Below, in pieces: positions 7,322 to 23,062 of a stretch of 64,000 bases of DNA. This DNA is from Myxococcales bacterium (GTDB lineage Bacteria; Myxococcota; Myxococcia; Myxococcales; JAJYLH01). The DNA is taken from assembly GCA_021787845.1 (NCBI GenBank), contig JAJYLH010000017.1, positions 1 to 64,000 on the forward strand. The letters are read 5' to 3'. The notes under the pieces were generated by a model. That model was not told the DNA's origin. It did no database searches and saw nothing but the letters and a program-made list of their open reading frames with translations. Within the stretch, counting starts at the first letter, position 1. Each line of letters begins with the position of its first letter. The translations under genes were made by a program, and so were the position numbers.

Positions 7322-7357
7322 ATCGGACCGATCGGACGGATCGGTCCGATCGGACCG
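7322..7357. repeat. 9-bp GATCGGTCC array, copy 2
   Basis: Four alternating units, ATCGGACCG, ATCGGACGG, ATCGGTCCG and ATCGGACCG, in the gap between the kelch gene start and the MoxR gene end (same strand). Confidence 0.9.
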
Positions 7358-7428
7358 CTCGGTGATGACGCCGGTCGAGGCCACGGGCCAGGAGCGACCG
7401 ACGGGCACGCGGCCGGGGACGCCCCCGT

Positions 7429-8346
7429 TCACTCCGGCGCGATGACCGCGAGGTGGTTCAGCGCCTGGGCGAGGTCGGACTCGTGCTTGAGCACGACCGA
7501 GAGGGTCTCGCCGACGAGCTTGGCGTCGAGGCTCGGCGCGTCCAGGAGCACGAGCGCGCGGGCCCAGTCGAGGGTCTCGGAAATCGAGGGCGGCTTCTTC
7601 AGCTCGAGCTTGCGCAGGGCGGTGACGGCCGCGACGACCCGCTGCGCCAGCGCCGCGGCGATGTCCGGCACGCGCGCGCGGACGATGGCGAGCTCCCGCT
7701 CGGGCGCGGGGAAGTCGAGGAAGAGGTGCAGACAGCGGCGCTTGAGCGCGTCGGAGAGCTCCCGGGTCGCGTTCGAGGTCAAGACGACGCGCGGAATCGA
7801 CACCGCCCGGATGGTGCCCAGCTCGGGCACGCTCACCGCGTAGTCCGAGAGCACCTCCAAGAGGAACGCCTCGAACTCCGGGTCGGCCTTGTCGATCTCG
7901 TCGATGAGCAGCACCACCGGCTCCGGCGAGCGGATGGCGGCGAGCAGCGGCCGCGGGAGCAGGAAGCGCTGGCTGAAGAAGACCGCGTCCGACCCCGCGA
8001 TGCGGCTCGCGGCCTCCTCGAGCGTGTCCGTGCCCTGCAGGAGCTCGCCCAGCTTGTCCTTCAGGAGCTGGGTGTAGAGGAGCTGCTTCGCGTACTCCCA
8101 CTCGTAGAGCGCCTTCGCCTCGTCGAGCCCCTCGTAGCACTGGAGCCGGACGAGAGGCCTGCCGGTGCCCTCGGCGAGGGCGCGCGCGAGGTCGGTCTTG
8201 CCGACGCCGGCGGGGCCTTCGACGAGCAGCGGCTTCTCCATCCGGTCCGCGAGGAAGAGGATGGTCGCGATGTCGCGGCTCGGGAGGTAGCCCGCGCGGG
8301 TCAGCCGCTCGGAGGCGTCGTCGATGCTCGCGAACGAGCCGGTCAT
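7429..8346 (-). CDS. MoxR-family AAA+ ATPase
   Basis: A 305-residue AAA+ ATPase of the MoxR family, which act as chaperones that load cofactors or remodel complexes, normally with VWA-domain partners. Walker A is GPAGVGKT (residues 44-51). Walker B is VVLLIDEIDKAD. The sensor-1 strand VVLTSNATREL and the arginine-finger region LKRRCLHLFLDFP follow. The CYEGLDEAKALYEWEY stretch after Walker A is the MoxR-specific insert, of the CoxD/NorQ-like type. No DUF58 or VWA gene is adjacent, which is unusual, so its client is unknown. The gene is bracketed by two 9-bp repeat arrays. Confidence 0.92.
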   Translation of the reverse strand: MTGSFASIDDASERLTRAGYLPSRDIATILFLADRMEKPLLVEGPAGVGKTDLARALAEGTGRPLVRLQCYEGLDEAKALYEWEYAKQLLYTQLLKDKLGELLQGTDTLEEAASRIAGSDAVFFSQRFLLPRPLLAAIRSPEPVVLLIDEIDKADPEFEAFLLEVLSDYAVSVPELGTIRAVSIPRVVLTSNATRELSDALKRRCLHLFLDFPAPERELAIVRARVPDIAAALAQRVVAAVTALRKLELKKPPSISETLDWARALVLLDAPSLDAKLVGETLSVVLKHESDLAQALNHLAVIAPE

Positions 8347-8372
8347 CCGAAGTCGACCTCGCGCGGGTGGAC

Positions 8373-8413
8373 GATCGGACCGATCGATCGGATCGGTCCG
8401 ATCGGTCGGATCG
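8373..8413. repeat. 9-bp GATCGGTCC array, copy 3
   Basis: Runs GATCGGACC GATCGATCG GATCGGTCC GATCGGTCG GATCG, just upstream of the MoxR start and downstream of the 8478 gene. Confidence 0.9.
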
Positions 8414-8477
8414 CATGCTCATCGGGCCGACCGCGCCTGGCACCACGAGCTCCCAGGAGCGGCACCGGAACCCCGTC

Positions 8478-9428
8478 CTACTTCTTCTGGCTCCGGTCGA
8501 GCTCCTTCGCGCTCATCACCTCGGCCTGGCCGGTGAAGATCTCGGCGCCCTGGACGCGCCAGTCGGGCTGCACGTCGAGCTGCGACTTGATGGCAAACGG
8601 CAGCGGCGGATCTCCGGTCTGCGACTTGATCTCCCCGTCGATCTCCAGCGTGGCGGTCTGGGCGTTCGCCGGCATCGGGTCGATGTACCAGACGGCGTAC
8701 GCGGCCTGCGGCGGGAACTGCCGAATCCAGCCGTCGGGGTAGTCGAGGAGCGACTCCGGCCCGCCCGGTCCGCCCTGGTGGCCGAGGTACTGGTCCTTCT
8801 TCCCCTTCGCGTTGGTGCCGACGTACTGCGCGTCGAGCGCGTTGAACGACAGGTCGAGGATCATCTTCCCGCTCGTCGCCTGGCCGTTCTCGGTCGCGAT
8901 GGACTCGTGCCGCGGCGCGCCCCAGACCGCCATGTCGATGCGCAGCCGGTCCTGAGTGCCCTGCTTGACCCGCTTGATGCCGAGCAGGTCGAAGCGCACC
9001 CCGTACATCGTCGACGAGGAAATCGGCCGGTACTGCCCGTCCTCCAGCAGGTCGTAGAACGACTTCGCCATCTTGTAGTAGTGCTCGCGCAGGGCCGCCT
9101 GGTCCTGGGAAATCACGCCGGCCTTCTTCGCCGCGTCGAGGGCGAGCTTGAGCGGCCCGTCCTGGTGGTACATCCCCGGGTGCTGGTTCGAGATGTTGTC
9201 GATCTGCGCCTGGTACCAGCGGGTCTGGCTCGCCAGCTCGTCGCGCCAGCGGTCGGTATCGCCCAGCGCGTAGGTGTAGCTCGCGCGCTCGACGTACTCG
9301 GCGTGGAGCTGCGCGAGCTTCGCTTTCAGGTCGAGGTGGTTGACCTCGTCCTGGTGCGAGTTGAAGGCGAGGATGGCGAGGACGACCAGCGCCCCGCCGA
9401 TGACAAGCACCTTGATCACCGGCTTCAT
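8478..9428 (-). CDS. membrane-anchored hypothetical protein
   Basis: The start is the ATG at 9426-9428 (MKPVIKVLVIGGALVVLAI). Longer frames extend into the GGACACGTGAGTGTCC repeat region and are rejected. The 316-residue product has one N-terminal membrane segment (residues 4-22), a helical stretch rich in Lys/Glu/Gln, and a C-terminal beta-rich half with YRPISSSTMYGVRFDLLGIKRV, IDMAVWG and AAYAVWYIDP. No family is recognised. The topology suggests an anchored periplasmic protein. It ends 50 bases upstream of copy 3 of the 9-bp array. Confidence 0.7.
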   Translation of the reverse strand: MKPVIKVLVIGGALVVLAILAFNSHQDEVNHLDLKAKLAQLHAEYVERASYTYALGDTDRWRDELASQTRWYQAQIDNISNQHPGMYHQDGPLKLALDAAKKAGVISQDQAALREHYYKMAKSFYDLLEDGQYRPISSSTMYGVRFDLLGIKRVKQGTQDRLRIDMAVWGAPRHESIATENGQATSGKMILDLSFNALDAQYVGTNAKGKKDQYLGHQGGPGGPESLLDYPDGWIRQFPPQAAYAVWYIDPMPANAQTATLEIDGEIKSQTGDPPLPFAIKSQLDVQPDWRVQGAEIFTGQAEVMSAKELDRSQKK

Positions 9429-9548
9429 CGTGAACGACTCCCGATTCGCTCTCGCGGGCGCTCCGCCGCGCCCCGAGACGAAGGCCGCCCTTCCTAGCCC
9501 ATCCGGCGGCCGGGCGCAAATCGGGGGCGCGCTGGGGTCCCGGTCGAT

Positions 9549-9815
9549 CCGGTTGACGCACTTGCCCCGAGTTGGTGCCGGACACGTGAGTGTCCGGGCA
9601 CAGGCACGGCCGCCGCACGCGCACAGGCTTCGCGTAGACGGCGCATCCGCGCGATGGTGTCGCCTGTACCCTTTGGGCGGGTGGGGAAGCCGGACACGTG
9701 AGTGTCCGGGTACAGGCACGGCCACCGCACGCGCACAGGCTTCGCGTAGACGGCGCATCCGCGCGATGGTGTCGCCTGTACCCGGACACTCACGTGTCCG
9801 GCTCCAAGTCCGGCT
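9549..9815. repeat. GGACACGTGAGTGTCC palindromic element with a 95-bp tandem duplication
   Basis: Two copies of a 95-bp unit (9577-9671 and 9689-9783) differ at only a few bases. Each begins GCCGGACACGTGAGTGTCCG; an inverted copy of that end, CCCGGACACTCACGTGTCCG, closes the block at 9781-9802. A leading CGGTTGACGCA at 9550-9560 also occurs at 38588. The 442-base gap 9429-9870 holds nothing else. Confidence 0.85.
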
Positions 9816-9870
9816 CCAAGCGGGTGGACCGGCCGGGCATGGTTCGGAGGTGACCCGAGCGCTCTTCCGT

Positions 9871-10380
9871 TCACGCCAACTGCGGCGGGCCGGGGGGCGC
9901 CTGCTGCTTGAGGCGGCGGAACTCGAGGTACATCGACGCGCGCCAGCGGACGATCATCCCGAACGCGAGCAGGTAGAAGAGCGCCGCGGTCTTCATCGGC
10001 GGGAGCATCTCGTCGAGATAGTCGTGCAGCGCGAAGCGGACGAGCACCAGCCCGATGAGGATGGTCAGGAACGCCTTCGAGCGCTGGAGGTAGATCGCGT
10101 CGCCGCGCCGGGTCAGCTTGGAGGTCTTCTGGAGCGGCACCGCGAGGAGCAGCGCGCCGAGCAGCACCGCTACGAGCCCCCAGGTGAGCGGCACGCGCAT
10201 CTTCGGGTCGAGGAACATGCAGAAGCCGGTCGCCATCCCGAGCGGCGGCATCACGATCTTCGCCGTCGAGATGGCGGTCTTCGTCTCGCGCACGCGCCAG
10301 AGCAGGATGACGCCGCCGCCGACCAGCGTCGCGGCGAGCATCAGGAGCTTCAGGTGAGGGAGGTTGGTGATCGCGTCCAC
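9871..10380 (-). CDS. CcdC-like (DUF1453) membrane protein
   Basis: A 169-residue membrane protein with about four to five hydrophobic segments. The block KIVMPPLGMATGFCMFLDPKMRVP (residues about 41-64) matches the conserved KI-x-PP-x-M-x-TGF-x-MF pattern of CcdC/DUF1453 proteins, whose gene lies in a cytochrome c maturation cluster in Bacillus but whose function is not established. Here no cytochrome maturation gene is adjacent. The start codon is GTG at 10378-10380 with GGAGG unusually close to it, so the exact start is less certain; an internal ATG lies at residue 14. Confidence 0.75.
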   Translation of the reverse strand: MDAITNLPHLKLLMLAATLVGGGVILLWRVRETKTAISTAKIVMPPLGMATGFCMFLDPKMRVPLTWGLVAVLLGALLLAVPLQKTSKLTRRGDAIYLQRSKAFLTILIGLVLVRFALHDYLDEMLPPMKTAALFYLLAFGMIVRWRASMYLEFRRLKQQAPPGPPQLA

Positions 10381-10484
10381 GCCTCCAAGCTTAACGGTGG
10401 TCCCGTCCGCTCGCCGCGATGTCGGCTACCGGTCGCCCGGCGAACGGGCAGGCGCCGATTCTCGGGGCTCGATCCGATTCGTAG

Positions 10485-10582
10485 GACGGGTGGAGCGCAG
10501 CGGAGCCCATCGTCGAGGGGCGTGGCTGATGTGGCGAGGACCTCGAAGCGCCTCCGCAGGACCTCGAAGCGCCTCCGGAAGA
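10485..10582. repeat. half-copy of the GGTGGAGCG family plus a 21-bp direct repeat
   Basis: Positions 10485-10514 (GGACGGGTGGAGCGCAGCGG AGCCCATCG) match one arm of the element at 4795. Positions 10540-10582 contain two direct copies of GGACCTCGAAGCGCCTCCG spaced 21 bases apart. The gap 10381-10770 holds no supportable gene. Confidence 0.65.
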
Positions 10583-10770
10583 CTCGACCGCGCCGGGCGC
10601 TTCGCGGACCGCCACCGACCCGGCCCTGGCCGAGGCCCGAGCGCCCGCGCCTCGGAGCCCTCGCGGCGGCGAACGCGCGCCCGCATCGCACGGCTTCCGG
10701 ACTCCCGCCGGTGGAGAAACGCGAAGGCGGCAGCCCCCGGCCACCGCCTCCGACCCGGAACCCGTTCCTA

Positions 10771-11514
10771 TTACGCGGTCTCCGGGGCCTCCGCCTTCTT
10801 CGCGCTGGCGGACTTCGCCTTCGCCTTCTTCTGGCCCTTCTTGTCCGTGGCCGGCGGAGTGTTGCCGTTCGACTTCTTCTTCGCCGCTGCCTTCTTCTTT
10901 CCGAACTTGACGAAGAACGACTCGACGAAGGCCGCCTTCTTCGGAAACTTGTTCTGGAGCGTGCCGTGCAGGGCGATGTAGCTCCCGCCCCAATCGTCCT
11001 TCGCGGTGTCGAGCGCCGCCTGCGCCGTCGCGTCGTCCGCCTCGGCCTTGGCCAGGTTCACCAGCGGCTTCTGCCACTGCGTCTTGAGATCCGCCAGCGG
11101 CTTCGCATACTCCGCACGGGTCTTGGGCAAGCCCGCGAGGTGGTCGCCGACATCCTTGAACCAGTCGTAGAAGTCGAGGGCGGTCAGGCGCTTCACCTTG
11201 GTCAACGACATCGTGAAGAGCGCCGTGTAGCGCTTGTCCTTGCGGTTCTTCCCGACCTCTTTGAACGCGGTGATTTCGACCTCGGTGATGAGGTCCTGCG
11301 AGTCGAAGTGGACGCAGAACACCGGGCCACGCATGTCGATGACGTGGTCGTCGGTGTCCAGCGCCTTCGACTGCGCCGCCTTGAGCCCGTCATGGACGGG
11401 CTGGATCTCGTTAGCGAACCCCTTGGTCGTGTTGCGCGAGCGCAACCGCGACATCGTCGTCCGCGACGCCTTGAGCAGCGTGCCGGGTGCCGCGGTGTTC
11501 GGAGGCTTCTCCAT
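10771..11514 (-). CDS. hypothetical protein with Lys/Ala-rich C-terminal tail
   Basis: The 247-residue protein has no signal peptide or membrane segment. Residues 1-150 form a mixed alpha/beta region (HVIDMRGPVFCVHFDSQDLITEVEITAF, followed by a charged helical part) of no family I recognise. The last 60 residues are a highly basic, Lys/Ala-rich tail (KFGKKKAAAKKKS... KKAKAKSASAKK), like histone H1-type tails of DNA-binding proteins in high-GC bacteria. AAGGAGGG stands six bases before the ATG, a strong ribosome binding site. The protein at 40987-42033 has a comparable Lys/Ala-rich low-complexity segment, at its N-terminus. DNA binding is inference. Confidence 0.65.
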   Translation of the reverse strand: MEKPPNTAAPGTLLKASRTTMSRLRSRNTTKGFANEIQPVHDGLKAAQSKALDTDDHVIDMRGPVFCVHFDSQDLITEVEITAFKEVGKNRKDKRYTALFTMSLTKVKRLTALDFYDWFKDVGDHLAGLPKTRAEYAKPLADLKTQWQKPLVNLAKAEADDATAQAALDTAKDDWGGSYIALHGTLQNKFPKKAAFVESFFVKFGKKKAAAKKKSNGNTPPATDKKGQKKAKAKSASAKKAEAPETA

Positions 11515-11745
11515 GTCGTCCCTCCTTTCTCAGGCCCGCGTGCCGGGGGTCGCGCGGGCATCCGAGGCGGATGGGTGCTGCGTGGGCGCCTCGGTGAAGC
11601 CATCCTGCGCCGGACAAAAAAGGGAGTCAAGAATTATTTCGACGGCGATCTCGCGCTATCGAGAACGCCGTTCACAAAATGCCGGCGGCCGGACCGGCCC
11701 CACCGCGCGCGAAGATGCGGATCGGGCGGAGCACGCGTGGGGGAG

Positions 11746-11955
11746 GCGCATCGACTTTCCGATGCGGAGAAAGCACGCGCTCCGAAGGCGCATCGACTTT
11801 TCGATGCGGGGATAGCACGCGCTCCGAAGGCGCATCGACTTTCCGATGCGGGGAAAGCACGCGCTCCCAAGGCGCATCGACTCTCCGATGCCGGCGCCGA
11901 ACGCGCTCTGGACCCCCATCGACTTTCCGATGCGGGCGCGGAAAGCATGCGGAGG
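11746..11955. repeat. 42-bp tandem hairpin array, five units
   Basis: Five units of 42 bp start at about 11746, 11788, 11830, 11872 and 11914. Each carries GCATCG-ACTTTC-CGATGC (a six-base-pair stem with a six-base loop) followed by GGGGAAAGCACGCGCTCC or a variant. The last two units are degenerate. All frames stay open through it because 42 is divisible by three; on the minus strand it reads as a 14-residue repeat with SESRCAFGARA. It lies about 240 bases upstream of the defence operon start. The rest of 11515-12197 holds no supportable gene. Confidence 0.85.
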
Positions 11956-12197: not shown

Positions 12198-13403
12198 ATG
12201 AGCACGCCGATGCTGAAATCGCTCCGAGTCTCGGGGCTATTGTCCTTCGGGCCCGAGCCGGTGGACATCCCGCTGACGCCGCTCAACGTGCTCATCGGAC
12301 CGAACGGTTCCGGGAAGTCCAACACCATCGAGGTCCTGTCGCTCCTGCAAGCCGCGCCGACGGACATCACGCGGCCGATCCGGAAAGGTGGTGGAGTACA
12401 AGAATGGGTCTGGAAGGGGGCGTCGCCACAGGACGCTTGGGCGATGGTCGAGGTGTTGGTGCGTAACCCATTCCTGCCGCGTCGCCCGGAGCACTCCACT
12501 GGATGGTTTCGGTATCGCCTCAAGATATACACGCTAGGTGGGTCGCCGTTTCTCATCGGCGACGAGACGCTCGAGGATGAGAACGCGCAACCAGGTCAGC
12601 AGAGACCATCTACCTTTTTCGAGTATGAGAACGGGCGGCCGATGCTCAGCATCAGAGGTGGACCCGAGCGTCGGGAAGTGCAACAAGGAAAGCTCAACCC
12701 GCAGCAGTCGATTCTGTCGCAGAGGAGAGAGCCGGAATTGTACCCCGAGATCACGAACACAGCGGAGCTGTTCTCGAGGATTCGCATCTATCGCGAGTGG
12801 TCTTTCGGCCGTCTTGCTCCCGCGCGCTTGCCGCAACGAACAGATCTTCCGAACGATCATCTCGATGAGGACACATCGAACCTCGCGCTGGTGCTGAGCC
12901 GCCTTCGACAGTACCCAGAGGTCAAGCGATCTTTGGTCAGAGAGCTCGGCACTCTGTCGCCGCACTTCGACGATTTCGAACTGAAGCTCGAAGGAGGAAC
13001 GGTGCAGATTGTCTTCATCGAAGGTGGTTTCACGATTCCCGCGACACGCCTGTCGGACGGCACTCTCCGTTACCTCTGCCTTCTCGCCATCCTGCTCGAC
13101 CCGACGCCGCCGCCGCTCGTGTGCATCGAAGAGCCCGAGCTCGGCCTGCACCCGGACATGATGCCGCAGATTGCTCGGCTCCTGCGGGAAGCGTCCGAAC
13201 GGATGCAGTTGGTTGTCACGACTCACTCGGATGCGCTGGTGAGCGCGCTTTCCGACACGCCGGAATCGGTAATCGTGTGCGAGAAGGAGGAGTCGAAGAC
13301 CTCGCTCGAACGCCTCAACGCCGCCGAGCTGAAACCGTGGCTGGAGAAATACCGGCTTGGGCAACTCTGGATGCGCGGAGATCTCGGAGGTACGCGATGG
13401 TGA
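12198..13403 (+). CDS. SMC/OLD-type AAA ATPase of a putative defence operon
   Basis: A 401-residue ABC/SMC-type ATPase of the AAA_15/AAA_21 group found in OLD, PARIS (AriA) and similar anti-phage systems. Walker A is GPNGSGKS (residues 34-41). A signature-like LSDGTLRYLCLLAILL, Walker B CIEEPELGLHP (E311, E312) and the switch His in TTHSDAL (H343) are all present, so it should bind and hydrolyse ATP. I begin it at the ATG at 12198, five bases after GGAGG; a longer frame runs back through the 42-bp array. Its stop overlaps the next start by seven bases (ATG at 13397), implying translational coupling. As in PARIS, the ATPase may sense infection and control the TOPRIM-like partner; that is inference. 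Confidence 0.88.
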   Translation: MSTPMLKSLRVSGLLSFGPEPVDIPLTPLNVLIGPNGSGKSNTIEVLSLLQAAPTDITRPIRKGGGVQEWVWKGASPQDAWAMVEVLVRNPFLPRRPEHSTGWFRYRLKIYTLGGSPFLIGDETLEDENAQPGQQRPSTFFEYENGRPMLSIRGGPERREVQQGKLNPQQSILSQRREPELYPEITNTAELFSRIRIYREWSFGRLAPARLPQRTDLPNDHLDEDTSNLALVLSRLRQYPEVKRSLVRELGTLSPHFDDFELKLEGGTVQIVFIEGGFTIPATRLSDGTLRYLCLLAILLDPTPPPLVCIEEPELGLHPDMMPQIARLLREASERMQLVVTTHSDALVSALSDTPESVIVCEKEESKTSLERLNAAELKPWLEKYRLGQLWMRGDLGGTRW

Positions 13404-14005
13404 AGCGCGCCGGCAAGCTCTTCATCGAGGGCGGCGGCGACTCCAACGACTTGCAGGCGGAGTGCCGCAACACCTTTCGGAACCTTCTCGAGAAGGCGGG
13501 GTTGAAGGGGCGCCTGCCGCGCATCATCGCGGCTGGTCCGCGCGAGGGCGCCTACCGAGACTTCTGTTCCTTCTTCAGCGATGGAACGGTGCGCGCGTTC
13601 TTGCTCGTCGACAGCGAGGGGCCGGTTTCCGCGACCTCGCCCTGGGAACACCTGAAGCAACGCGACAAGTGGGAGAAGCCCCCGCGCGCCACCGACGACC
13701 AGTGTCATCTCATGGTGCAGTGCATGGAGACCTGGTTTCTCGCCGACCCGCCCGCTTTGCAGACGTTCTTCGGCCAGGGCTTCGCACCGAAATCGCTGCC
13801 GGCGCATGCGAACATCGAGGACGCTCCGAAGACCGAGGTGCTCGCCGGCCTCGAGGCCGCGACCGCGCAGACGAAGACCAAGGGCGAGTACGACAAGGGC
13901 GCGCACAGCTTCAAGGTTCTCGGGACGCTCGACCCGGCGAAGGTCCGGCAGCGCTCGAAGTGGGCCGAGCGGTTCTTCGCGACGATGGAGAGGGTTCTCG
14001 AGTAA
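13397..14005 (+). CDS. DUF4276/TOPRIM-like putative effector
   Basis: A 202-residue protein encoded in overlap with the ATPase. It has the motif order of TOPRIM-like folds: an early acidic strand KLFIEGGGDSND (E11, D15), an LLVDSEG strand (D72, E74) and MVQCMETWFLAD (E111, D117), which is the typical pattern of DUF4276 proteins. These residues could bind Mg2+ for nuclease activity, as in OLD-family and AriB-type partners, though catalysis is not shown. CGGAGG lies six bases before the ATG. Fifteen bases separate its stop from the restriction-modification gene. A second ATPase plus TOPRIM-like pair occurs at 42268-44201. Confidence 0.78.
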   Translation: MVKRAGKLFIEGGGDSNDLQAECRNTFRNLLEKAGLKGRLPRIIAAGPREGAYRDFCSFFSDGTVRAFLLVDSEGPVSATSPWEHLKQRDKWEKPPRATDDQCHLMVQCMETWFLADPPALQTFFGQGFAPKSLPAHANIEDAPKTEVLAGLEAATAQTKTKGEYDKGAHSFKVLGTLDPAKVRQRSKWAERFFATMERVLE

Positions 14006-14020
14006 CCGGAAGGCGACGTG

Positions 14021-16840
14021 ATGGCAATCGACCGCGCGACCATCGAACGGCTGGTGAAGCACTTCGAGCGTCTCGAAGCGACCGGCGCGAGCCGCGACCT
14101 GAAGGAAGCGGCCGTCCGGGACGAATTCATCAACCCCTTCTTCGAAGCGCTCGGATGGGACGTGCGCAACGTCGCGCGCAAGGCGCCGCGGTTCAAGGAC
14201 GTGCTCAAGAACGAGACCGTCCGGCGCGGCGAGGAGACCAAGGAACCGGACTACACGTTTCGCATCGGCGGCGGCGACGTGTTCTACCTGGAGGCGAAGA
14301 AGCCCGCGGTCATCATCACGACGGATCGCGAGCCGGCGTTGCAGCTTCGCCGCTACTCATGGCCCGCCGAGTCGCATCTCTTCGGCGTACTGACGAACTT
14401 CCGGGACCTGCTCGTCTACGATCGCGCGGTACGGCCCTCGCCAACGGACGGCGCGATGTCCGCGTGCCTCCTGCGGCTGCGGTTCGACGAGTATCTGCCG
14501 CGCCTCGACGAGCTGGCATCGCTGCTGACGCGCGAGGGCATCGAAGGAGCCGAGCATCCGATCTTCACGCAAACGCGCGAGACCCGGCGCGGGACGCTCC
14601 CGTTCGATGATCAGTTCCTCGCTCAGCTCGAAGCATGGCGACTTCTCCTCGGGAGAAGCATCGCATCGGCGAATCCGGAGCTCGACGCGCCGGCCGTCAC
14701 TCTCGTCGTTCAACGCATCATTGACCGACTGCTCTTCCTGAGAATCTGCGAGGACAAGGGCATCGAGCCGTACCGCACGCTCGACCGTATCGCCGGACAG
14801 GACAAGCCGTTCGCGCGTCTGGTCAAGCTCTTCCATTACGCCGACCGGCGATTCAACTCGGGGCTGTTCCACTTCCGACCGGCTGCCGGCCGCAGCGAAG
14901 AAATCGATCGTCTGACCACGAGCTTGTCCGTTCCTGACGCGCCCGTCGTCGAGCTCCTTCGCGGCTTGTATCCGCCGTCGCTGCCGTATGCCTTTGGCGC
15001 GTTGCCGCCGGACATCCTCGGTCAGGTCTACGAACGGTTCCTCGGCAACGTCCTGGAGATTCATCGCGGCCGTCGAGTTCGCGCGGTGCCGAAGGAGGAG
15101 GTCCGACGAGCCGGCGCCATCTACTACACGCCCGCGCCGGTCGTCAGACACATCGTCCATTCGGTCTTGGAGCCGCTGCTGCAAACGCACGCGCCCGACT
15201 TCAAGCAGCCGCTGCGCGTGCTCGACCCCGCTTGCGGTTCGGGATCGTTTCTCGTCGAGGCGTACCTTTACTTGCTCGACTGGTACCTCGACCGGTTCAC
15301 GGCGAGCCCGTCCGCGACGCGTGCAGCGTTGCGCAAAGGTCTGCTCGTCCGAGACGGTGGGACGCCGCGGCTCAGCCTCGATGCGCGGCGACGCATCCTT
15401 CTCGCGCACGTCCACGGCGTCGATGTCGATCGCAACGCGGTCGAAGTGACGAAGCTTTCGCTCCTCATCCAGATGCTCGCGCCGTGCGCGCCGGAGATTG
15501 CGCAAGTCGATTTCGACGATGGCCACGAGAGCCTCTTGCCGGACCTCGGGCGCAACATCGTTGCCGGAAACAGCATCATCGAGCCGGACTTCGAGAGCAC
15601 GTCGCGTTCGGCGGAGACGCGCAGCACCATCTCCGCGCTGCCGATGCGATGGGATGAGGCTTTCCCCGATGTCACCGCGGCCGGCGGCTTCGATGCCATC
15701 ATTGGCAACCCGCCTTACGACAAGGTCTCGCGCCGGGAGACGCCGTACGAATACGACTACCTGAAGCAGCACTTCCCGCGCACCGCGCAGTACAAGATCG
15801 AGCTCTACGCAGTCTTCATCGAACGCGTGTTGCAACTCCTGCGCGAAGGCGGCCTGCATTCTTTCATCGTGCCGAACAGCTTTCTCGCCGGCGTGTACCT
15901 CGAAGATCTTCGCAACTTGATGGCGCTCGACAATACCCTCGTCGATCTCGCGTTCTTGCAGTTCCAAGTCTTTCGCGCCGCGAAGCTCGATTCGGTCATC
16001 TATATCGTGAAGCGAGAGAAGCCGACTCCGGCGACGCGCCTGCGCCTGCGCAAGGCGGACGAGTCGTTCCAAACCATCCCGGAGGGCGAACAAGTCCTGA
16101 CCGTGAAGCAGTGGCAACAGAGCGCCGGCCGCACGTTCGCGATGACCACCGGCGCAGGCGCGCAGCGGCTCGTGCGAGAGCTGGAACAGGCGCCGCGGCG
16201 GCTCAGCGACCTCGCGACGATTCACCTCGGCCTCGTGCCGAAATCAAACGATCTCGTCAGCGACTCCCGCACGAGCACCGCGCGCGATGGCCTCCTCCGA
16301 GCCCGCGACTTTGGCCGCTACGAACAAGCGACGCCGATACGATGGTTCGACTTCGCCCACACGGAAATCGCCGGGGGCACCAAGGACGCCGCGGTCTACC
16401 AGACCGGCCCGCGCATCGTCGCCCACGCCATCCGCAACCTGCGCATCCCGCGACGCCTCGTCTGCGGACTCGCCGAGGCAGGCACCTTTACCGACGGAAC
16501 CGTCCACAACATCCTCCCGAAGCCGGGAGTCGATGCGCTCACCCTCCTCGGCATCCTCGACTCGAACGTGATCGATCGCTACTACGCCGCCCGGTTCCCC
16601 GAACATCGCATCAAGGGCGAGTACCTGAAGTCGCTCCCGATGCCCGAGCTGTCGCGACGCGATGCGGAGAGCATCGCAAAGCTGGTTCGTCAGCGTATCG
16701 AGGCGAACGCGATGCCGGACCCGCTCGACCGTGAGCGACAGATCAGGCACTGCGAGCGAGAGCTCGATGCCGCCGTCGCCCAGGCGTTCGGGCTGTCGGA
16801 GGCGGCGGCGGTGTTCGTGGCGAGGACGGCGGCGATGTAG
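14021..16840 (+). CDS. type IIG (Eco57I-like) restriction-modification enzyme
   Basis: A 939-residue single-chain restriction-methylation enzyme. The N-terminal nuclease shows a PD-(D/E)xK pattern: EPDYTF (D77) then VFYLEAKK (E91-x-K93). The methyltransferase core has motif I DPACGSGSF beginning at residue 402, a DVD-x-NAVEVTKLSL acidic loop, and motif IV NPPY at 563-566, the signature of N6-adenine methylation. The C-terminal part (about 700-900: HLGLVPKSNDL, GRYEQATPIRWFD, FPEHRIKGEYLKSLPMP) is the TaqI-like target-recognition region. The ATG at 14021 follows GGAAGG; a GTG directly before it is less likely. It is the third gene of the operon. All key residues are present, so it looks intact. 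Confidence 0.9.
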   Translation: MAIDRATIERLVKHFERLEATGASRDLKEAAVRDEFINPFFEALGWDVRNVARKAPRFKDVLKNETVRRGEETKEPDYTFRIGGGDVFYLEAKKPAVIITTDREPALQLRRYSWPAESHLFGVLTNFRDLLVYDRAVRPSPTDGAMSACLLRLRFDEYLPRLDELASLLTREGIEGAEHPIFTQTRETRRGTLPFDDQFLAQLEAWRLLLGRSIASANPELDAPAVTLVVQRIIDRLLFLRICEDKGIEPYRTLDRIAGQDKPFARLVKLFHYADRRFNSGLFHFRPAAGRSEEIDRLTTSLSVPDAPVVELLRGLYPPSLPYAFGALPPDILGQVYERFLGNVLEIHRGRRVRAVPKEEVRRAGAIYYTPAPVVRHIVHSVLEPLLQTHAPDFKQPLRVLDPACGSGSFLVEAYLYLLDWYLDRFTASPSATRAALRKGLLVRDGGTPRLSLDARRRILLAHVHGVDVDRNAVEVTKLSLLIQMLAPCAPEIAQVDFDDGHESLLPDLGRNIVAGNSIIEPDFESTSRSAETRSTISALPMRWDEAFPDVTAAGGFDAIIGNPPYDKVSRRETPYEYDYLKQHFPRTAQYKIELYAVFIERVLQLLREGGLHSFIVPNSFLAGVYLEDLRNLMALDNTLVDLAFLQFQVFRAAKLDSVIYIVKREKPTPATRLRLRKADESFQTIPEGEQVLTVKQWQQSAGRTFAMTTGAGAQRLVRELEQAPRRLSDLATIHLGLVPKSNDLVSDSRTSTARDGLLRARDFGRYEQATPIRWFDFAHTEIAGGTKDAAVYQTGPRIVAHAIRNLRIPRRLVCGLAEAGTFTDGTVHNILPKPGVDALTLLGILDSNVIDRYYAARFPEHRIKGEYLKSLPMPELSRRDAESIAKLVRQRIEANAMPDPLDRERQIRHCERELDAAVAQAFGLSEAAAVFVARTAAM

Positions 16841-16889: not shown

Positions 16890-19154
16890 TCAGAGACGCT
16901 TTGCCGCTGCAACAGCCGGATCGGAAGAACGATCTTGCTCCAGAAGAAGCTGGCGGGCACGAGCTCGCGCCCGCGAAACGGGATGCCAGATCGTGTTCCC
17001 CCGTAAGACAATGGGCAGCGCTAGACCCTCGTGTTGCAAGATAGCTAGAACGCCTGCCACTTTGGATTGCTCGTTCTGGTGCATCCCTCGGAACAAGGCG
17101 TTCTCACGACGTCCGTGCCCCTTCTGGATGTAGAGCTTCCGAAGGACCGCCAAGAGAACTCTGGCTCCAAGGGGAAGTCGGTCTTGCTCAAGAAGCTCAT
17201 TAGTTGTGGTTGCAAGCGTGTCATATTCACCGATCTCGCATTTTCCCATCCACGATGGCGTGTCGCGCTCCGAGAAGACGTTGAGAACGCTCTTAACAGT
17301 ACAGTCCTCTATCGCCACGCTCGTTTCATCACGTCGGTCCACGATAACCGTGTCGATCTGACAGTCCTCAAGGCAAAGACGCGAAACCGATGGTCCGGAA
17401 AGATCGACGATGGAAAGATCTCCTCCGGTAATCTTCAATCCTTGGAAGTCCACGTGTTGAGCAGTTGTTCCACCGCGCAACGCAAGAGCGACAAGATCCC
17501 CAGCAAGTGTTGGGGAGTTCCATCGCATCGCGGCCTCGCGAGCGGCAACCACTGCGTGCGCAACGAGAGACTCGTCCGCGTCCTGCCGAGAACGGACGGC
17601 GTCAACTGCAAGTTCGCCCAAAGGATTCTGCCAACGGGACGCATGGGGGTCCACGTACGGGTTCTCGAGGAATCTGGCCACATCTCCCGCTCGTAGGACA
17701 TCTACTAGCTGATCATCGAGGAAGGCTCTGCTTCCGGTTTGCCGATCTCGAGCTGTGAGGCCAGGAAGTCGTTGAAGCAGTGGGCGTGCAGTTTCATCGG
17801 GATACGCGCCAGTTTCCGCTCGAAAGGCGCCGCCGATATCGTCTTCGGTCAAGGGACCTAGGCCATCAGCCATGATGCGGGCCTTGGAGGCAAGTCGCTC
17901 CAAGATGTTGCGTATTGTGGATGCGTCAAGGTACTTGTGAATCTTCGCCTCACGTTCGCAGATCTTGTCGATCATCGAGGACCATGCCCGTGCCGGCTCA
18001 ACTTCCTCGGAAAGTGCGTCTTGAAGGAAGCCGCGAGCCGCGAAGGTGGCGAGCAGGAGAGGACGCCGTGGCAGCCAATCTGGCACCTCGAAATCAATCC
18101 CGACTTCGGTGAGGTACTTCCGCGCAGACTCGTCATCAAAATCGATCAGCTGCACAAGAGGATCGGTGCTTCGAAGTCCTAGGGAGTTTCGAAGCTCGCC
18201 GTGGGAGTCAAAGAAGTGCTCGCGGCCGCAGACGAGCAGACCTCCCTTCCCTCTCGCCAGCTCAACAAAGCGAGCAACTAGACTAACCGCATTCGCGCGG
18301 AGATCACGTAGACGCTTGTTCCCGCGGCCACTCCATGAGATGGAGGCGATCTCGTCAAATCCGTCAAGAAGCACGATGCATTGACCAGCGTTAAAGGCGC
18401 GTACAAGCTGATGGGGCTGTTCAAATCCAACGTGCCTGGCATGGCGGACAAGCGCCTCAGCCGGTTCGGACTGACCCCAGTGGTCTCTCAGGTTCAACGC
18501 AATGGGAACGAGCGAACTGTTTGAACGGAAGAAGGCCCTCTTAAGTTCGTCGAAGACGTGTTTGAAGGTAAGACTCTTCCCAACGCCAAAATCACCGATC
18601 ATACAGGAAACTGCACCCGCAGTTAGCTCGCCGGCCAACTGGCTAATGGTATACGTCACAGCGGTACGGGTGTCGACGATCGGCGTCGGCACAAAACGAA
18701 CCTCTTTCAAATCCACCGAGTCGTTCCGCGGATCAACGGCACTCCCAAAAGGGTATGACGTTCGGAGCTGTAGGTATTTTTGTCCATCGATCAATTTCTT
18801 CTGAAACTCCGCGAAGGAGATGACGGTGACTTTAAGCATCTTGCCGAGGGAGTGCTGTTCTGCAGTGGGCTCGTCACGGGTAACAAACCAACAAGCTACG
18901 AGCCTTCCGTGCTTGCCGCGGTCGTCGCGGTAGGTCTTGAGCTTGTTCCCGTCCTTTTTCAACTTCTCGAGGGTCCGCGACGTGGTGCACTCGACGTAGT
19001 GGGTGAGATCCTCTGTCTCAATAATACAGTCACGTTCGCGCCCGTCTACGAGGTCGGGTGCGCCATCGCCCGGTCGCGCGTCCCAAAGAGCGCGCGCGGC
19101 ACGGCGGACCTCCGCCTCAAATGCCGATGCCTCCTCAAAAGATGCTCCAGACAT
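16890..19154 (-). CDS. nuclease-domain NACHT NTPase (bacterial NLR-like defence protein)
   Basis: A 754-residue predicted defence protein. Residues 30-110 look like a PD-(D/E)xK-type nuclease domain (IIETEDLTHYVECTTSR), but the usual ExK lysine position reads Thr (ECT), so catalysis is uncertain. A NACHT module follows: Walker A GDFGVGKS (187-194), Walker B IVLLDGFDEI (260-269), LLVCGREHFF and WLPRRPLLLATF. The C-terminus (about 570-640) has short beta-strand repeats resembling a right-handed helix or sensor region. The coding strand is visibly lower in GC than its neighbours, suggesting recent transfer. GAGGTGA precedes the ATG at 19152-19154; an upstream ATG at 19205 would overlap nrdJ. It is convergent with the type IIG gene, 49 bases apart, and lies 25 bases after nrdJ. 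Confidence 0.82.
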   Translation of the reverse strand: MSGASFEEASAFEAEVRRAARALWDARPGDGAPDLVDGRERDCIIETEDLTHYVECTTSRTLEKLKKDGNKLKTYRDDRGKHGRLVACWFVTRDEPTAEQHSLGKMLKVTVISFAEFQKKLIDGQKYLQLRTSYPFGSAVDPRNDSVDLKEVRFVPTPIVDTRTAVTYTISQLAGELTAGAVSCMIGDFGVGKSLTFKHVFDELKRAFFRSNSSLVPIALNLRDHWGQSEPAEALVRHARHVGFEQPHQLVRAFNAGQCIVLLDGFDEIASISWSGRGNKRLRDLRANAVSLVARFVELARGKGGLLVCGREHFFDSHGELRNSLGLRSTDPLVQLIDFDDESARKYLTEVGIDFEVPDWLPRRPLLLATFAARGFLQDALSEEVEPARAWSSMIDKICEREAKIHKYLDASTIRNILERLASKARIMADGLGPLTEDDIGGAFRAETGAYPDETARPLLQRLPGLTARDRQTGSRAFLDDQLVDVLRAGDVARFLENPYVDPHASRWQNPLGELAVDAVRSRQDADESLVAHAVVAAREAAMRWNSPTLAGDLVALALRGGTTAQHVDFQGLKITGGDLSIVDLSGPSVSRLCLEDCQIDTVIVDRRDETSVAIEDCTVKSVLNVFSERDTPSWMGKCEIGEYDTLATTTNELLEQDRLPLGARVLLAVLRKLYIQKGHGRRENALFRGMHQNEQSKVAGVLAILQHEGLALPIVLRGNTIWHPVSRARARARQLLLEQDRSSDPAVAAAKRL

Positions 19155-19179: not shown

Positions 19180-22100
19180 TCAGCTGCACCCCATGCTGGT
19201 ACCACAGTTCAAGCACTTGAAGCAAGCGCCGTTGCGGACGGTGATGTGGCCGCAGGTATCGCAGAACGGGGCATCGCCTCCCAGCTCTCCCAAGAGCGCG
19301 TCTTGGGCGGAGGCTCCACGCCGTTTGAGCTCGTTGCGCTGTTCGGCCATCTCGGCGGTGGTCGGCAGGCGCGGCGCCGCGGTCGATGATGCGATGGGCG
19401 GCGTCTGGATGGAGCTCGCCGAGGCCTGGGCGCGCATGGACGGGTCATCGGAGACCGCGCTCGTCGGATGATCCTGCGCCTGCTCCGGCGGGACGTGGGC
19501 GAGGTCGTCGCGGCCCAAGTATTCGACCGCCAGCGCGCGGAAAACGAAGTCGATGACGCTCGTCGCGAACTTCACGCGGTCGTGTCCCTTGACCGGTCCC
19601 TGCGGCTCGAAGCGGGTGAAGACGAACTGGTCGACCAGCACCTCCAAGGGCACTCCGTACTGGAGCGCAATCGAAGTCAGCATCGAGAAGCAGTTGAGCA
19701 TCGACCGGTACGCCGCGCCCTCCTTGTGCATGTCGATGAAGATTTCGCCGAGCCGCCCGTCCGCGTACTCGCCCGTCCGCAGGAACAGCTTGAACCCGCC
19801 GATGCGCGCCTCCTGGGTGATGCCCAGCCGCCGGGCCGGCAACCGATGCCGTTCGAGCTTCGCCGGCGAGCTGACCGAGGGCTTTCCATCGATGGTCGTC
19901 GGCGCGTTCGCGGCAATCGCTTGCGCGCGGGCCGCCATGCCCGCATCCAGGGGCGTTCGTCCTTCCCGCTCATCGTGAGCTTGTCGAAGGGCGCCCGACG
20001 ATAGGGCGGTCGGGCTCCGCTCCGGATGAACGGGTTCGGACTCGGGCCCACGCATCTCGAAACCGCGGTGAGCGGATTCGGTGTCCGCAGTGCCCAGCCC
20101 GAGTCCGCGCTGGCCATCTTCCGATGCCACGCCGGCGCTCAGGCTCTGCGCGACCGTCTGCACCGTGCTCGCGACCGCCGCTTCCACTTCCTGCTTCGCC
20201 GCCGCGGGAATCGGCGCGGTCTTCGATTCCGCCTTCGTCTCTGCCTTCGTCGACAACGGCTGCGACAGCTTGCAGCCATCGCGGTAGAGCGCAATCGCCT
20301 TGAGCCCCAGCTTCCACGAGTCGTAGTGGATGCGCTCGATGTCCTCGATCGTCGCCTCGTGCGGCAGGTTGATGGTCTTCGAAATCGCTCCCGAGATGAA
20401 CGGCTGCACCGCGGCCATCATCCGGATGTGGCCCATCGGTTCGATGTAGCGCTTCCCGTACGGGCCGCAGCGGTTCGCGCAGTCGAACACCACGAGGTGC
20501 TGCGGCTCCAGGCCCGGCGCGCCTTCGATGGTCTGGCGGCCGCAGATGATGTCGTTCGCCTCGCTGACCTGCTTCTTGGTGAAGCCGAGGAAGCCGAGCA
20601 GATCGAACGCGAAGCTCGCGCGCTCCTCTTCGGGGACCCCCAGCCGCTCGAGCAATGTCGCGCCGACGACCCGCGGCGAGAACGCCTGCTTCAAGTCCAG
20701 CGCGCCCTTGAGCGCCCGTTCGACGCTGGCGATCTCCTCCGGCAGGAAGCCCTTCGCCTTCAGGGTCTCGCGGTTGATGTGCGGCGCGTCGTCGAGGGTC
20801 GAGGTGCCGACCGCGTAGCGGATGATCGCGGTCACGGTCTCGTCGTCGTAGCCGAGAGACTTGAGCGCCCGCGGCACCGACTGGTTGACGATTTTGAAGA
20901 AGCCGCCGCCCGCCAGCTTCTTGAACTTCACCAGCGCGAAGTCGGGCTCGACGCCGGTCGTGTCGCAATCCATCAGGAGGCCGATGGTGCCCGTCGGCGC
21001 GAGCACGCTCGCCTGCGCGTTGCGGTAGCCGTGCTCCTCGCCCAGCTCGATCGCGCGCGTCCAGCATTCGCGCGCCGCCTCGAGCAGGTCCTGCGGCACG
21101 TGTCCCGCGGGAATCGCCTCCGCCGCGTCGGAGTGCATCCGCATCACGTCCAGCATCGACGCGCGGTTTGGAGCGAAGCTCGGGAACGGCCCTTTCACCG
21201 CCGCCATCTCCGCCGAGAGCGCGTAGGCTTCGCCGGTCATCAGCGACGTGATCGCCGCCGCCACGTCGCGCCCGGCGTCGGAGTCGTAGGGCAGCCCCTT
21301 GACCATCAGGAGCGTGCCCAGGTTCGCGTACCCGAGGCCGAGCGTTCGGAACTTGTGAGACTTCTCGGCAATCTTCTGCGTCGGATAGCTCGCGAGGTCC
21401 ACCAGGATTTCCTGCGCGAGGAAGAACGTCCGACACGCATGCCGGAAGCCCTCGACGTCGAAGCGCCCCTGGTCGTCGAGGAACTTCAAGAGGTTCACCG
21501 ACGCGAGGTTGCAGGCGGTGTCATCGATGAAGAGGTACTCGCTGCAGGGGTTCGACGCGTTGATGCGTTCCGACTTCTTGCACGTGTGCCACTTGTTGAT
21601 CGTGTCGTCGAACTGGATGCCGGGGTCGGCGCAGTACCAGGAGGCGTCGGCGATCATCCGCCAGAGGTCGCGAGCGCGGTGGGTCTTGTGCTCCTGGCCG
21701 GTGGTGCGAAAGCGCGTGGTCCAGCTCTCGTCCTCGTCCACGCGACGCATGAACTCGTCGGTCACGCGCACCGAGTTGTTCGAGTTCTGTCCCGCGACCG
21801 TGTGGTAGGCCTCGCCGTTGAAGTCCGACGAGTAGCCCGCCGCGATCAGCGCCGCGACCTTGCGCTCCTCGCGCTTCTTCCAGGTGATGAACCGGTCGAT
21901 TTCCGGATGGTCGAGGTCGACGATCACCATCTTCGCCGCGCGCCGGGTGGTGCCGCCGGATTTGGTCGCGCCGGCGCCGCGGTCGAGCACTTCGAGGAAG
22001 CTCATCAGACCCGACGACAAACCGCCGCCAGAGAGCTTCTCCATCTCCCCGCGCAGCCGGGAGAAGTTGGTGCCGGTACCCGAGCCGTACTTGAAGACGC

Positions 22101-22791
22101 GGCTCTCGTTCTTGACCAGGTCGAAGATGCTGGAGAGGTCGTCGTCGACCGACTGGATGAAGCACGCCGACACTTGCGGGCGCTGGTAGGCGTTCGCGGT
22201 CGGCTCCGCACGGCCGGCGGCGTCGCTCCAGGCGAAGTTCCCGCCCGAGCCCTCGATGCCGTACTGATGGTAGAGGCCGCAGTTGAACCACACCGGGCTG
22301 TTGAACGCACCGATCTGGTGCACGAGCATGTAGCTCAGCTCGGCCTCGAAGCTGTCGGCGGTCGCCTCGTCCGCGAGCAGTCCCTGCTCGACGCCGGAAG
22401 CGCGGATGGTCCGGGCGACGCGCTCGACGAGCTGGCGGACGCTCTTCTCGTGGCCGGTGCCGGGGACGCCCGCCTTGCGGAAGTACTTGCTGACCGCGAC
22501 GTCGGTCGCGAGCTGGCTCCAGTCGGCCGGCACCTCGACGTCGTCGAGCCGGAAGACCACCGTGCCGTCGGGGTCGGCGATGACGCTCTTGCTCGCGGTC
22601 CACTCGACCTGGTCGAGCGGGTCGATGCCCGTCCGCGTGAACCGCCGCGGAATCGAGAGAGCGCGCGCGGCGTGCTTCTCCTCTTTCTCCGGGCTCATTT
22701 CCACGAGCGCTTCGGGCACCGGAAGCTGCGGACCGGCCACGTCGTCCGTCAGGTGCCCGCTTGCGAGCGTCTTCATCGTTCCCTTGTCCAT
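19180..22791 (-). CDS. nrdJ: adenosylcobalamin-dependent (class II) ribonucleotide reductase
   Basis: A 1203-residue class II ribonucleotide reductase, reducing ribonucleotides to deoxyribonucleotides with a cobalamin-derived radical. Landmarks are FNSPVWFNCG, the PQVSACFIQSVDD strand, GSGTGTNFSRLRG, NPCSEYLF (active-site Cys and Glu), ASVNLLKFLD, APTGTIGLLMDCDTTGVEP and a C-terminal CDTC-x-CLNC-type zinc ribbon. The start is the ATG at 22789-22791 behind AGGAGA; the longer frame is repeat sequence. The region between the catalytic core and the C-terminal domain is a long low-complexity linker that contains a dispersed repeat at 19964-20030. NrdR-type control is possible (see 22930). The nuclease-NACHT gene begins 25 bases downstream. 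Confidence 0.95.
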   Translation of the reverse strand: MDKGTMKTLASGHLTDDVAGPQLPVPEALVEMSPEKEEKHAARALSIPRRFTRTGIDPLDQVEWTASKSVIADPDGTVVFRLDDVEVPADWSQLATDVAVSKYFRKAGVPGTGHEKSVRQLVERVARTIRASGVEQGLLADEATADSFEAELSYMLVHQIGAFNSPVWFNCGLYHQYGIEGSGGNFAWSDAAGRAEPTANAYQRPQVSACFIQSVDDDLSSIFDLVKNESRVFKYGSGTGTNFSRLRGEMEKLSGGGLSSGLMSFLEVLDRGAGATKSGGTTRRAAKMVIVDLDHPEIDRFITWKKREERKVAALIAAGYSSDFNGEAYHTVAGQNSNNSVRVTDEFMRRVDEDESWTTRFRTTGQEHKTHRARDLWRMIADASWYCADPGIQFDDTINKWHTCKKSERINASNPCSEYLFIDDTACNLASVNLLKFLDDQGRFDVEGFRHACRTFFLAQEILVDLASYPTQKIAEKSHKFRTLGLGYANLGTLLMVKGLPYDSDAGRDVAAAITSLMTGEAYALSAEMAAVKGPFPSFAPNRASMLDVMRMHSDAAEAIPAGHVPQDLLEAARECWTRAIELGEEHGYRNAQASVLAPTGTIGLLMDCDTTGVEPDFALVKFKKLAGGGFFKIVNQSVPRALKSLGYDDETVTAIIRYAVGTSTLDDAPHINRETLKAKGFLPEEIASVERALKGALDLKQAFSPRVVGATLLERLGVPEEERASFAFDLLGFLGFTKKQVSEANDIICGRQTIEGAPGLEPQHLVVFDCANRCGPYGKRYIEPMGHIRMMAAVQPFISGAISKTINLPHEATIEDIERIHYDSWKLGLKAIALYRDGCKLSQPLSTKAETKAESKTAPIPAAAKQEVEAAVASTVQTVAQSLSAGVASEDGQRGLGLGTADTESAHRGFEMRGPESEPVHPERSPTALSSGALRQAHDEREGRTPLDAGMAARAQAIAANAPTTIDGKPSVSSPAKLERHRLPARRLGITQEARIGGFKLFLRTGEYADGRLGEIFIDMHKEGAAYRSMLNCFSMLTSIALQYGVPLEVLVDQFVFTRFEPQGPVKGHDRVKFATSVIDFVFRALAVEYLGRDDLAHVPPEQAQDHPTSAVSDDPSMRAQASASSIQTPPIASSTAAPRLPTTAEMAEQRNELKRRGASAQDALLGELGGDAPFCDTCGHITVRNGACFKCLNCGTSMGCS
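19964..20030. repeat. dispersed repeat embedded in the nrdJ linker
   Basis: On the nrdJ coding strand this reads CATCCGGAGCGGAGCCCGAC then CTTCGACAAGCTCACGATGAG, the same CTTCGA-N-GCTCA-GATGAGC family seen between genes at 2664, 49531 and 55606. It is translated in frame as PERSPTALSSGALRQAHDER, lengthening the linker before the C-terminal domain. Confidence 0.75.
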
Positions 22792-22929
22792 CCTGCTCTC
22801 CTGCCGACCTCGAAAAGATGGCGGCGGCCTCGCGGGCCCGACCCGGCGGTGGTGAAAAAGCGCGACCGGGCATGTAAGCACCCGCCGGCAAGGACTACAA
22901 CCCCTCGTGCGTAAGCGCCCGAAAGGACA

Positions 22930-22942
22930 CCACAAATTGTGG
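22930..22942 (-). promoter_or_regulatory. CCACAA-N-TTGTGG palindrome upstream of nrdJ
   Basis: A 13-base inverted repeat about 140 bases upstream of the nrdJ start, within a GC-rich stretch. The extended sequence ACACCACAAATTGTGGAG partly resembles the NrdR box (ACAC-W-ATATAT-W-GTGT). No second box at the usual spacing was found, so NrdR binding is only a suggestion. Confidence 0.3.
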
Positions 22943-23025
22943 AGGGGCCTCGGGGAGGGGCGCCAGGCGAAACCGACCGGCCGCGGCGGTCGGGGAGGGA
23001 TCGCTCGGCTTCAGACTCGCTGGGC

Positions 23026-23062
23026 GACCGATCGGTCCGATCCGACCGATCGGTCCGATCGC
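23026..23062. repeat. 9-bp GATCGGTCC array, copy 4
   Basis: Reads GACCGATCGGTCC GATCC GACCGATCGGTCC GATCG, two palindromic units in the divergent gap between nrdJ and the alpha-2-macroglobulin gene. The gap 22792-23170 contains this and the CCACAA palindrome only. Confidence 0.9.

What the first reader, a model, noticed from the sequence alone, without database searches (positions are those of the whole stretch)
16890..19154. Nuclease-NACHT protein with an atypical ECT nuclease motif
A PD-(D/E)xK-like N-terminus is fused to a NACHT NTPase, the layout of bacterial NLR-like defence proteins. The catalytic position expected to be Lys is Thr (VECTT), and the C-terminus ends in beta-strand repeats rather than common TPR or LRR sensors. 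Lower GC points to transfer. It is adjacent and convergent to the operon above, which completes a defence island.
Basis: partly seen in the sequence, partly recalled or inferred. Interest (0 to 1): 0.62.

Follow-up and report, generated by a model that had tools for sequence, protein, structure and literature searches.

The report
Phage-borne NACHT nuclease, relocated catalytic lysine
This myxobacterial gene encodes a bacterial immune-receptor-like protein with a DNA-cutting-type domain whose key lysine appears to have moved to a neighbouring helix; sister genes ride on phages, on a plasmid and beside other defence genes, so it is a recognisable variant of a known anti-phage design rather than something wholly new.

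Summary
Window 16890-19154 (-) encodes an intact 754-aa protein: a PD-(D/E)xK-type N-terminus, a NACHT NTPase, a short pentapeptide-like beta-helix and a winged-helix-like C-terminus (so it does not end in beta repeats). GC3 is 60% against 90% in neighbouring nrdJ. Twelve full-length relatives (26-45% identical) were found: three in myxobacterial chromosomes, one in Pseudomonas phage Haddon, one in an Erwinia plasmid, seven in IMG/VR viral contigs. The Thr is no accident: Thr/Ser replaces the ExK lysine in 13 of 13 members, while E13, D42, E55 and a lysine nine residues after the Glu (K64) are invariant. AlphaFold2 puts K64 in the first turn of the helix after the third core strand, where this lysine is known to migrate in other PD-(D/E)xK families and in cap-snatching endonucleases. 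The nuclease is therefore probably active. One relative lies 28 nt behind a complete DISARM operon; another lies where flank homology with five sister species breaks off. Best reading: a mobile, phage-exchanged, bNACHT-like abortive-infection nuclease. The layout is known (bNACHT25, Mrr-NACHT); the shifted-lysine family is a new variant. Activity, substrate and trigger are untested.

The parts
16890..19154 (-). Nuclease-NACHT gene, 754 aa, intact
18750..19154 (-). Residues 1-135: restriction-endonuclease-like domain
   Evidence: AlphaFold2 mean pLDDT 78; Foldseek top hits Cdn1, R.BspD6I2, Can2, N.BspD6I
18942..18998 (-). Residues 53-71, YVECTTSRTLEKLKKDGNK: E55, Thr at the usual Lys position (57), invariant K64, then D68 and K71
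19029..19031 (-). D42, invariant motif II aspartate
   Evidence: 13/13
19116..19118 (-). E13, invariant motif I glutamate in helix 1
   Evidence: 13/13
18573..18596 (-). Walker A GDFGVGKS (residues 187-194)
18351..18368 (-). Walker B LDGFDE (residues 263-268)
17715..18662 (-). NACHT module with its helical/winged-helix part, about residues 165-480
   Evidence: Pfam; Foldseek NLRC4, NLRP9, NAIP5, NLRP3
17475..17714 (-). Helical linker, about residues 481-560
   Evidence: AlphaFold2 secondary structure
17220..17462 (-). Short pentapeptide-like beta-helix, about residues 565-645
   Evidence: AlphaFold2; weak profile match to pentapeptide proteins, E 0.003
16941..17216 (-). C-terminal winged-helix-like domain, residues 647-738, conserved K673, Q677, R682, G690, P725
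   Evidence: match to a winged-helix repressor not significant, E 0.24
12198..13403 (+). Neighbour: HEC-01A-type AAA ATPase
   Evidence: PADLOC E 4e-162
13397..14005 (+). Neighbour: HEC-01B (DUF4276)
   Evidence: PADLOC E 2e-77, Pfam E 9e-24
14021..16840 (+). Neighbour: type IIG restriction enzyme-methyltransferase (HSDR_N, Eco57I-type methylase, TaqI_C)
19180..22935 (-). Upstream, same strand: B12-dependent ribonucleotide reductase nrdJ; its stop is 25 nt before the NACHT start codon

Best explanation
The gene encodes a bacterial NACHT (NLR-like) immune switch. Inferred working: the C-terminal beta-helix and winged-helix region senses a product or consequence of phage infection; ATP binding by the NACHT module drives assembly; assembly activates the N-terminal PD-(D/E)xK domain, which cuts nucleic acid (most likely DNA) and stops the infected cell. 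The catalytic site is E13, D42, E55 plus a lysine that has moved from the third strand (E+2, now Thr/Ser) to the next helix (K64, E+9), backed by D68 and K71 on the same helical face. The gene moves between chromosomes, plasmids and phages. Shown by computation: domain layout, fold, family-wide motif, mobility pattern. Inferred: activity, substrate, trigger, defence.
For: Twelve full-length relatives. Across all 13, E13, D42, E55 and K64 are invariant, position 57 is T (11) or S (2), D68 is 12/13, position 71 is K/R. K64 is at the start of helix 62-81 just after strand 51-57; K64, D68 and K71 fall on one helical face (i, i+4, i+7). Foldseek ranks PD-(D/E)xK nucleases first (Cdn1 E 3e-4, R.BspD6I2 E 6e-4), with arenavirus endonucleases also listed. 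Precedents: PMC1913061 describes Thr at motif III with Lys migrated to the motif IV helix; PMC4909276 describes a helix-borne catalytic Lys in Hantaan, influenza and Lassa endonucleases, with Lassa D119 bonding K115 and K122, the same K-x3-D-x2-K spacing. NACHT. Defence and mobility: a relative directly behind DISARM drmD-MI-A-B-C; relatives in phage Haddon, an Erwinia plasmid and contigs with portal, integrase and replication genes; the tree mixes phage and chromosomal copies; copies are 7-18 GC points below their flanks (window copy); flank homology with five sister species stops at the G122 copy. A nuclease-NACHT defence protein has been shown experimentally (bNACHT25, PMC12169576).
Against: No member has been tested, so activity is inferred from conservation. 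Sequence profiles do not connect the N-terminus to any solved nuclease, and Pfam gives only weak hits in single members, one of them an 'inactive' REase family. PADLOC does not recognise the protein. The AlphaFold2 models rest on 8 sequences, and side-chain geometry could not be measured. Of four chromosomal copies, G118 has no recognised defence neighbour and G122 only a Ser/Thr kinase, weak evidence in myxobacteria.
Confidence: 0.68

Rival explanations
1. The N-terminal domain is a catalytically dead restriction-endonuclease fold, like the NACHT-associated inactive REases, used to bind nucleic acid or as an adaptor; the real effector step lies elsewhere.
For: Two of 12 members hit Pfam NA-iREase1, best E 0.03. 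Large myxobacterial NACHT proteins carry a domain at the same place that aligns with ours (hhalign E 2e-4, probability 46%) and lacks the catalytic residues. L082 shows an Mrr + NA-iREase1 + NACHT order.
Against: E13, D42, E55 and K64 are invariant in 13 sequences that are only 26-45% identical to the window protein, which is not expected of a dead site. The window protein itself does not reach NA-iREase1. No second effector domain is present in these 750-aa proteins.
Confidence: 0.15
2. The domain is an RNase rather than a DNase: its helix-borne lysine resembles that of cap-snatching endonucleases, and activation cuts RNA to stop the cell.
For: Same K-x3-D-x2-K helix pattern as Lassa K115/D119/K122 (PMC4909276); arenavirus endonucleases in the Foldseek list.
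Against: The best Foldseek matches are restriction or CARF-type nucleases, and the arenavirus matches superpose poorly (rmsd 12 A or more). Known nuclease-NACHT proteins degrade DNA (PMC12169576). The lysine shift alone does not tell DNA from RNA.
Confidence: 0.12
3. The gene is not about phage: it is a housekeeping regulator tied to nrdJ and DNA precursor metabolism.
For: It starts 25 nt after the nrdJ stop on the same strand, so it may be co-transcribed.
Against: None of the relatives whose flanks were read sits by nrdJ; they follow drmC or ftsA or lie in phages. Ten relatives of the host keep nrdJ without it. Its GC3 is far from that of nrdJ.
Confidence: 0.03

Closest known systems
bNACHT25/bNACHT32 (bNACHT clade 6; PMC12169576)
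   Same: N-terminal PD-(D/E)xK nuclease, central NACHT, C-terminal sensor; nuclease residue D48 is needed for defence
   Different: Clade 6 has an NCH1 helical C-terminus; here a beta-helix plus winged helix and no Pfam C-terminal hit. Whether bNACHT25 has ExK or a shifted Lys could not be read here
Mrr-NACHT fusions and P4-hotspot STAND nucleases (PMC1913061, PMC9122126)
   Same: Restriction-endonuclease-fold effector fused to a STAND NTPase, in mobile defence hotspots
   Different: Those use Mrr_cat or BpuSI_N nucleases; the Mrr-like Rhizobium NACHT protein in L009 reads the ordinary VEAK
PD-(D/E)xK families with migrated lysine (DUF506, DUF790, DUF1626; PMC1913061)
   Same: Motif III Lys replaced, in DUF1626 often by Thr, with basic residues in the motif IV helix
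   Different: Not described as NACHT fusions there; no sequence link found here
NA-iREase1 (PF22722)
   Same: REase-fold domain directly before NACHT
   Different: Described as inactive; catalytic residues are kept here, and the match is below threshold
Avs/AVAST STAND defence proteins
   Same: STAND NTPase with an N-terminal effector such as a nuclease
   Different: No PADLOC match for the window protein

Membership tests
bNACHT (bacterial NLR-related) proteins | Central NACHT NTPase with Walker A and LDGFDE-type Walker B | tested here: met
   PF05729 in 13/13 members, below the cut-off in the window copy; motifs invariant; NLR structures by Foldseek
bNACHT (bacterial NLR-related) proteins | Three-part layout: effector, NACHT, C-terminal sensor | tested here: met
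   AlphaFold2 layout and fold matches; the sensing role of the C-terminus is inferred
bNACHT (bacterial NLR-related) proteins | Protects against phage | not testable with these tools
   needs an infection assay
bNACHT clade 6 (bNACHT25) | C-terminal NCH1 helical domain | tested here: inconclusive
[quoted passage not shown]
   predicted structure and Foldseek
PD-(D/E)xK superfamily | Motif II Asp and motif III Glu | tested here: met
   D42 and E55 in 13/13
PD-(D/E)xK superfamily | Lys at Glu+2 (canonical ExK) | tested here: not met
   T or S in 13/13; accepted variants of the superfamily place the Lys in the motif IV helix (PMC1913061)
PD-(D/E)xK, migrated-lysine variant | Conserved basic residue in the helix after strand 3 | tested here: met
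   K64 in 13/13, helix 62-81
PD-(D/E)xK, migrated-lysine variant | Lys side chain reaches the active site; nuclease activity | not testable with these tools
   model coordinates not readable; no assay
NA-iREase1 (PF22722) | Profile match above the curated cut-off of 27 bits | tested here: not met
   no match in the window's genome; 2 of 12 members, best E 0.03
NA-iREase1 (PF22722) | Loss of catalytic residues | tested here: not met
   E13, D42, E55, K64 invariant
Avs/AVAST or other PADLOC system | Match to a PADLOC-DB 2.0.0 model | tested here: not met
   no family at E up to 1 for the window protein; only weak scattered hits in other members

The most novel reading that the evidence does not exclude
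This is a separate, phage-borne lineage of nuclease-NACHT immune proteins with a helix-borne catalytic lysine laid out like that of cap-snatching endonucleases (E, D, E, then K-x3-D-x2-K), switched on by an unusual beta-helix/winged-helix sensor and used by prophages to exclude rival phages, possibly by cutting RNA.
Probability: 0.15. Interest if true: 0.62.

Novelty: new variant of a known kind. Interest (0 to 1): 0.45.

Why it matters
A motif search for ExK would call this nuclease dead, and PADLOC misses the whole family. If the shifted lysine works, a class of immune nucleases is being overlooked, and the test is simple (K64A against T57A). The copies on phages and beside DISARM give ready material for asking what the C-terminal sensor detects.

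Tried and rejected
phmmer of the window protein against PDB sequences gave nothing useful, nor did profiles of the N-terminal or C-terminal parts. Single-query scans of IMG/VR added only copies already found. Blastn of two relatives against complete E. coli genomes found none. The Campylobacterales hit (L005) came from a shared 8-residue pattern and is a stand-alone endonuclease-like ORF beside a methyltransferase, reading INIK; not counted as a relative. Foldseek of the full model against viral predicted structures gave only generic ATPases. Accidental loss of the catalytic Lys was rejected because Thr/Ser is family-wide and K64 invariant. A K at E+3 as the replacement was rejected: present in 5 of 13 only. 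The idea that the gene belongs with nrdJ was rejected. Profile comparison with ordinary Mrr domains of two NACHT proteins gave nothing. A direct comparison with bNACHT25 was wanted but its sequence could not be reached.

Full report
Observation. The minus-strand ORF at 16890-19154 is intact and 754 aa long. Its start codon lies 25 nt after the stop of nrdJ, with a ribosome-site-like AGGTG. It converges on an operon of HEC-01A, HEC-01B and a type IIG restriction-modification enzyme ending at 16840. GC is 57.0% and GC3 59.7%, against 68.3% for the window and a GC3 of 89.5% for nrdJ. There is one copy in the genome.

Relatives. The genome search found one full-length relative in the order (G008). 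The plasmid and phage collections gave one each: an Erwinia persicina plasmid and Pseudomonas phage Haddon CDS0030. A profile of these four then found full-length copies in eight IMG/VR contigs (seven distinct proteins) and two more myxobacterial copies, G118 and G122. All are about 740-770 aa and align end to end. The alignment of 13 holds the window protein, three other chromosomal copies, Haddon, Erwinia and seven viral rows; two viral rows (L011, L012) are 98% alike, so there are about 12 independent sequences.

Nuclease domain. AlphaFold2 (8 sequences, mean pLDDT 78) gives helix 6-23, short strands up to 46, strand 51-57, helix 62-81, strand 86-92, helix 98-106, strand 110-113, the restriction-endonuclease core. 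The first Foldseek hits are Cdn1, R.BspD6I2, VC1899, N.BspD6I and Can2. E13 (helix 1), D42 (beside strand 2) and E55 (strand 3) are invariant; E55+2 is T in 11 and S in 2; K64 is invariant; D68 is 12/13; position 71 is K or R in all. K64 is the only invariant lysine of the domain.

What the Thr means. PMC1913061 notes that in several PD-(D/E)xK families the motif III lysine migrates to the motif IV helix, in DUF1626 often with Thr left behind. In Hantaan, influenza and Lassa endonucleases the catalytic lysine also comes from that helix, and in Lassa D119 bonds K115 and K122 (PMC4909276); K64, D68 and K71 here have the same spacing. The parallel is one of active-site layout. Common descent is not claimed, since the Foldseek superpositions onto arenavirus enzymes are poor.

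Caution on activity. Pfam holds a NACHT-associated inactive REase family (PF22722), and two members reach it weakly. Large myxobacterial NACHT proteins (frames of about 1,700-1,900 aa) have a domain at the same place, aligning over 121 columns (hhalign E 2e-4, probability 46%) but without the catalytic residues. So dead relatives may exist; the strict conservation in this family argues that this branch is alive.

NACHT and C-terminus. NACHT is matched by all 13 members, and Foldseek lists NLRC4, NLRP9, NAIP5 and NLRP3. After a helical stretch comes a short beta-helix (567-624), with a weak profile match to pentapeptide proteins (E 0.003), then a winged-helix-like domain 647-738 whose best sequence match, a winged-helix repressor, is not significant (E 0.24). 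The sensor role is inferred from position.

Mobility and defence context. The tree pairs the G008 chromosomal copy with phage Haddon (support 100/99) and the G122 chromosomal copy with a viral contig (95/96), so copies pass between phages and chromosomes. Viral neighbours include a portal protein, an integrase and replication genes. The G008 copy is 28 nt downstream of drmC in drmD-drmMI-drmA-drmB-drmC. At the G122 copy the flank matches five sister species at 94-98% and stops just before the gene; the far edge of that insertion was not found. The eleven other copies measured are about 7-18 GC points below their own flanks, and the window copy is 11 points below the window average. Ten relatives of the host whose nrdJ flank was read lack the gene there.

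Mechanism. Shown by computation: layout, folds, family-wide motif, mobility pattern. Inferred from bNACHT25, which needs its nuclease residue D48 and degrades DNA on infection (PMC12169576), and from STAND proteins in general: C-terminal sensing, ATP-dependent assembly through NACHT, activation of the nuclease, death or arrest of the infected cell. DNA as substrate is more likely than RNA because the nearest folds and the nearest tested systems cut DNA, but this is open.

Verdict. Nuclease-NACHT defence proteins are a known kind (PMC12169576), and STAND proteins with Mrr nucleases sit in P4-like phage-satellite hotspots (PMC9122126). New here is a coherent, phage-exchanged family with a shifted catalytic lysine and a beta-helix/winged-helix C-terminus that PADLOC does not recognise. 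Activity and trigger remain to be tested.

Noticed in passing
window 12198-16840 (+): HEC-01A/HEC-01B pair with a type IIG restriction-modification enzyme in one operon; a candidate defence cassette in its own right. Another relative of the type IIG enzyme (36% identical) lies elsewhere in the same genome (C24).
   Followed up: partly
L006 206-15954 (G008 contig 82): A relative of the NACHT gene sits 28 nt behind a complete DISARM operon drmD-drmMI-drmA-drmB-drmC on the same strand.
   Followed up: yes
L057 about 7535-11179 (G122): A relative sits just downstream of ftsA; five sister species keep the ftsA flank at 94-98% identity, but homology breaks off just before the NACHT gene. The far edge of the insertion was not found.
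   Followed up: partly
L022, L023, L026, L036: Large myxobacterial NACHT proteins carry a domain before NACHT that aligns with this nuclease but lacks its catalytic residues: possibly dead sister domains.
   Followed up: partly
L082 (G144 C58): A protein with an ordinary Mrr nuclease, then an NA-iREase1 domain, then NACHT: active and inactive REase folds in tandem.
   Followed up: no
all measured family copies: Copies are about 7-18 GC points below their flanks whatever the host, from 34% GC in the Erwinia plasmid to 63% GC in G008.
   Followed up: partly
window 11744-11936: A 42-bp tandem repeat, 4.6 copies, upstream of HEC-01A.
   Followed up: no
window 7322-7362, 8372-8413, 23025-23061, 9577-9783: Short 9/18-bp arrays of the CGATCGGTC type scattered in the window, and a 112-bp near-perfect tandem duplication.
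   Followed up: no
L005 7791-9157: Campylobacterales stand-alone endonuclease-like ORF reading INIK next to a DNA methyltransferase, picked up through a shared 8-residue pattern.
   Followed up: no
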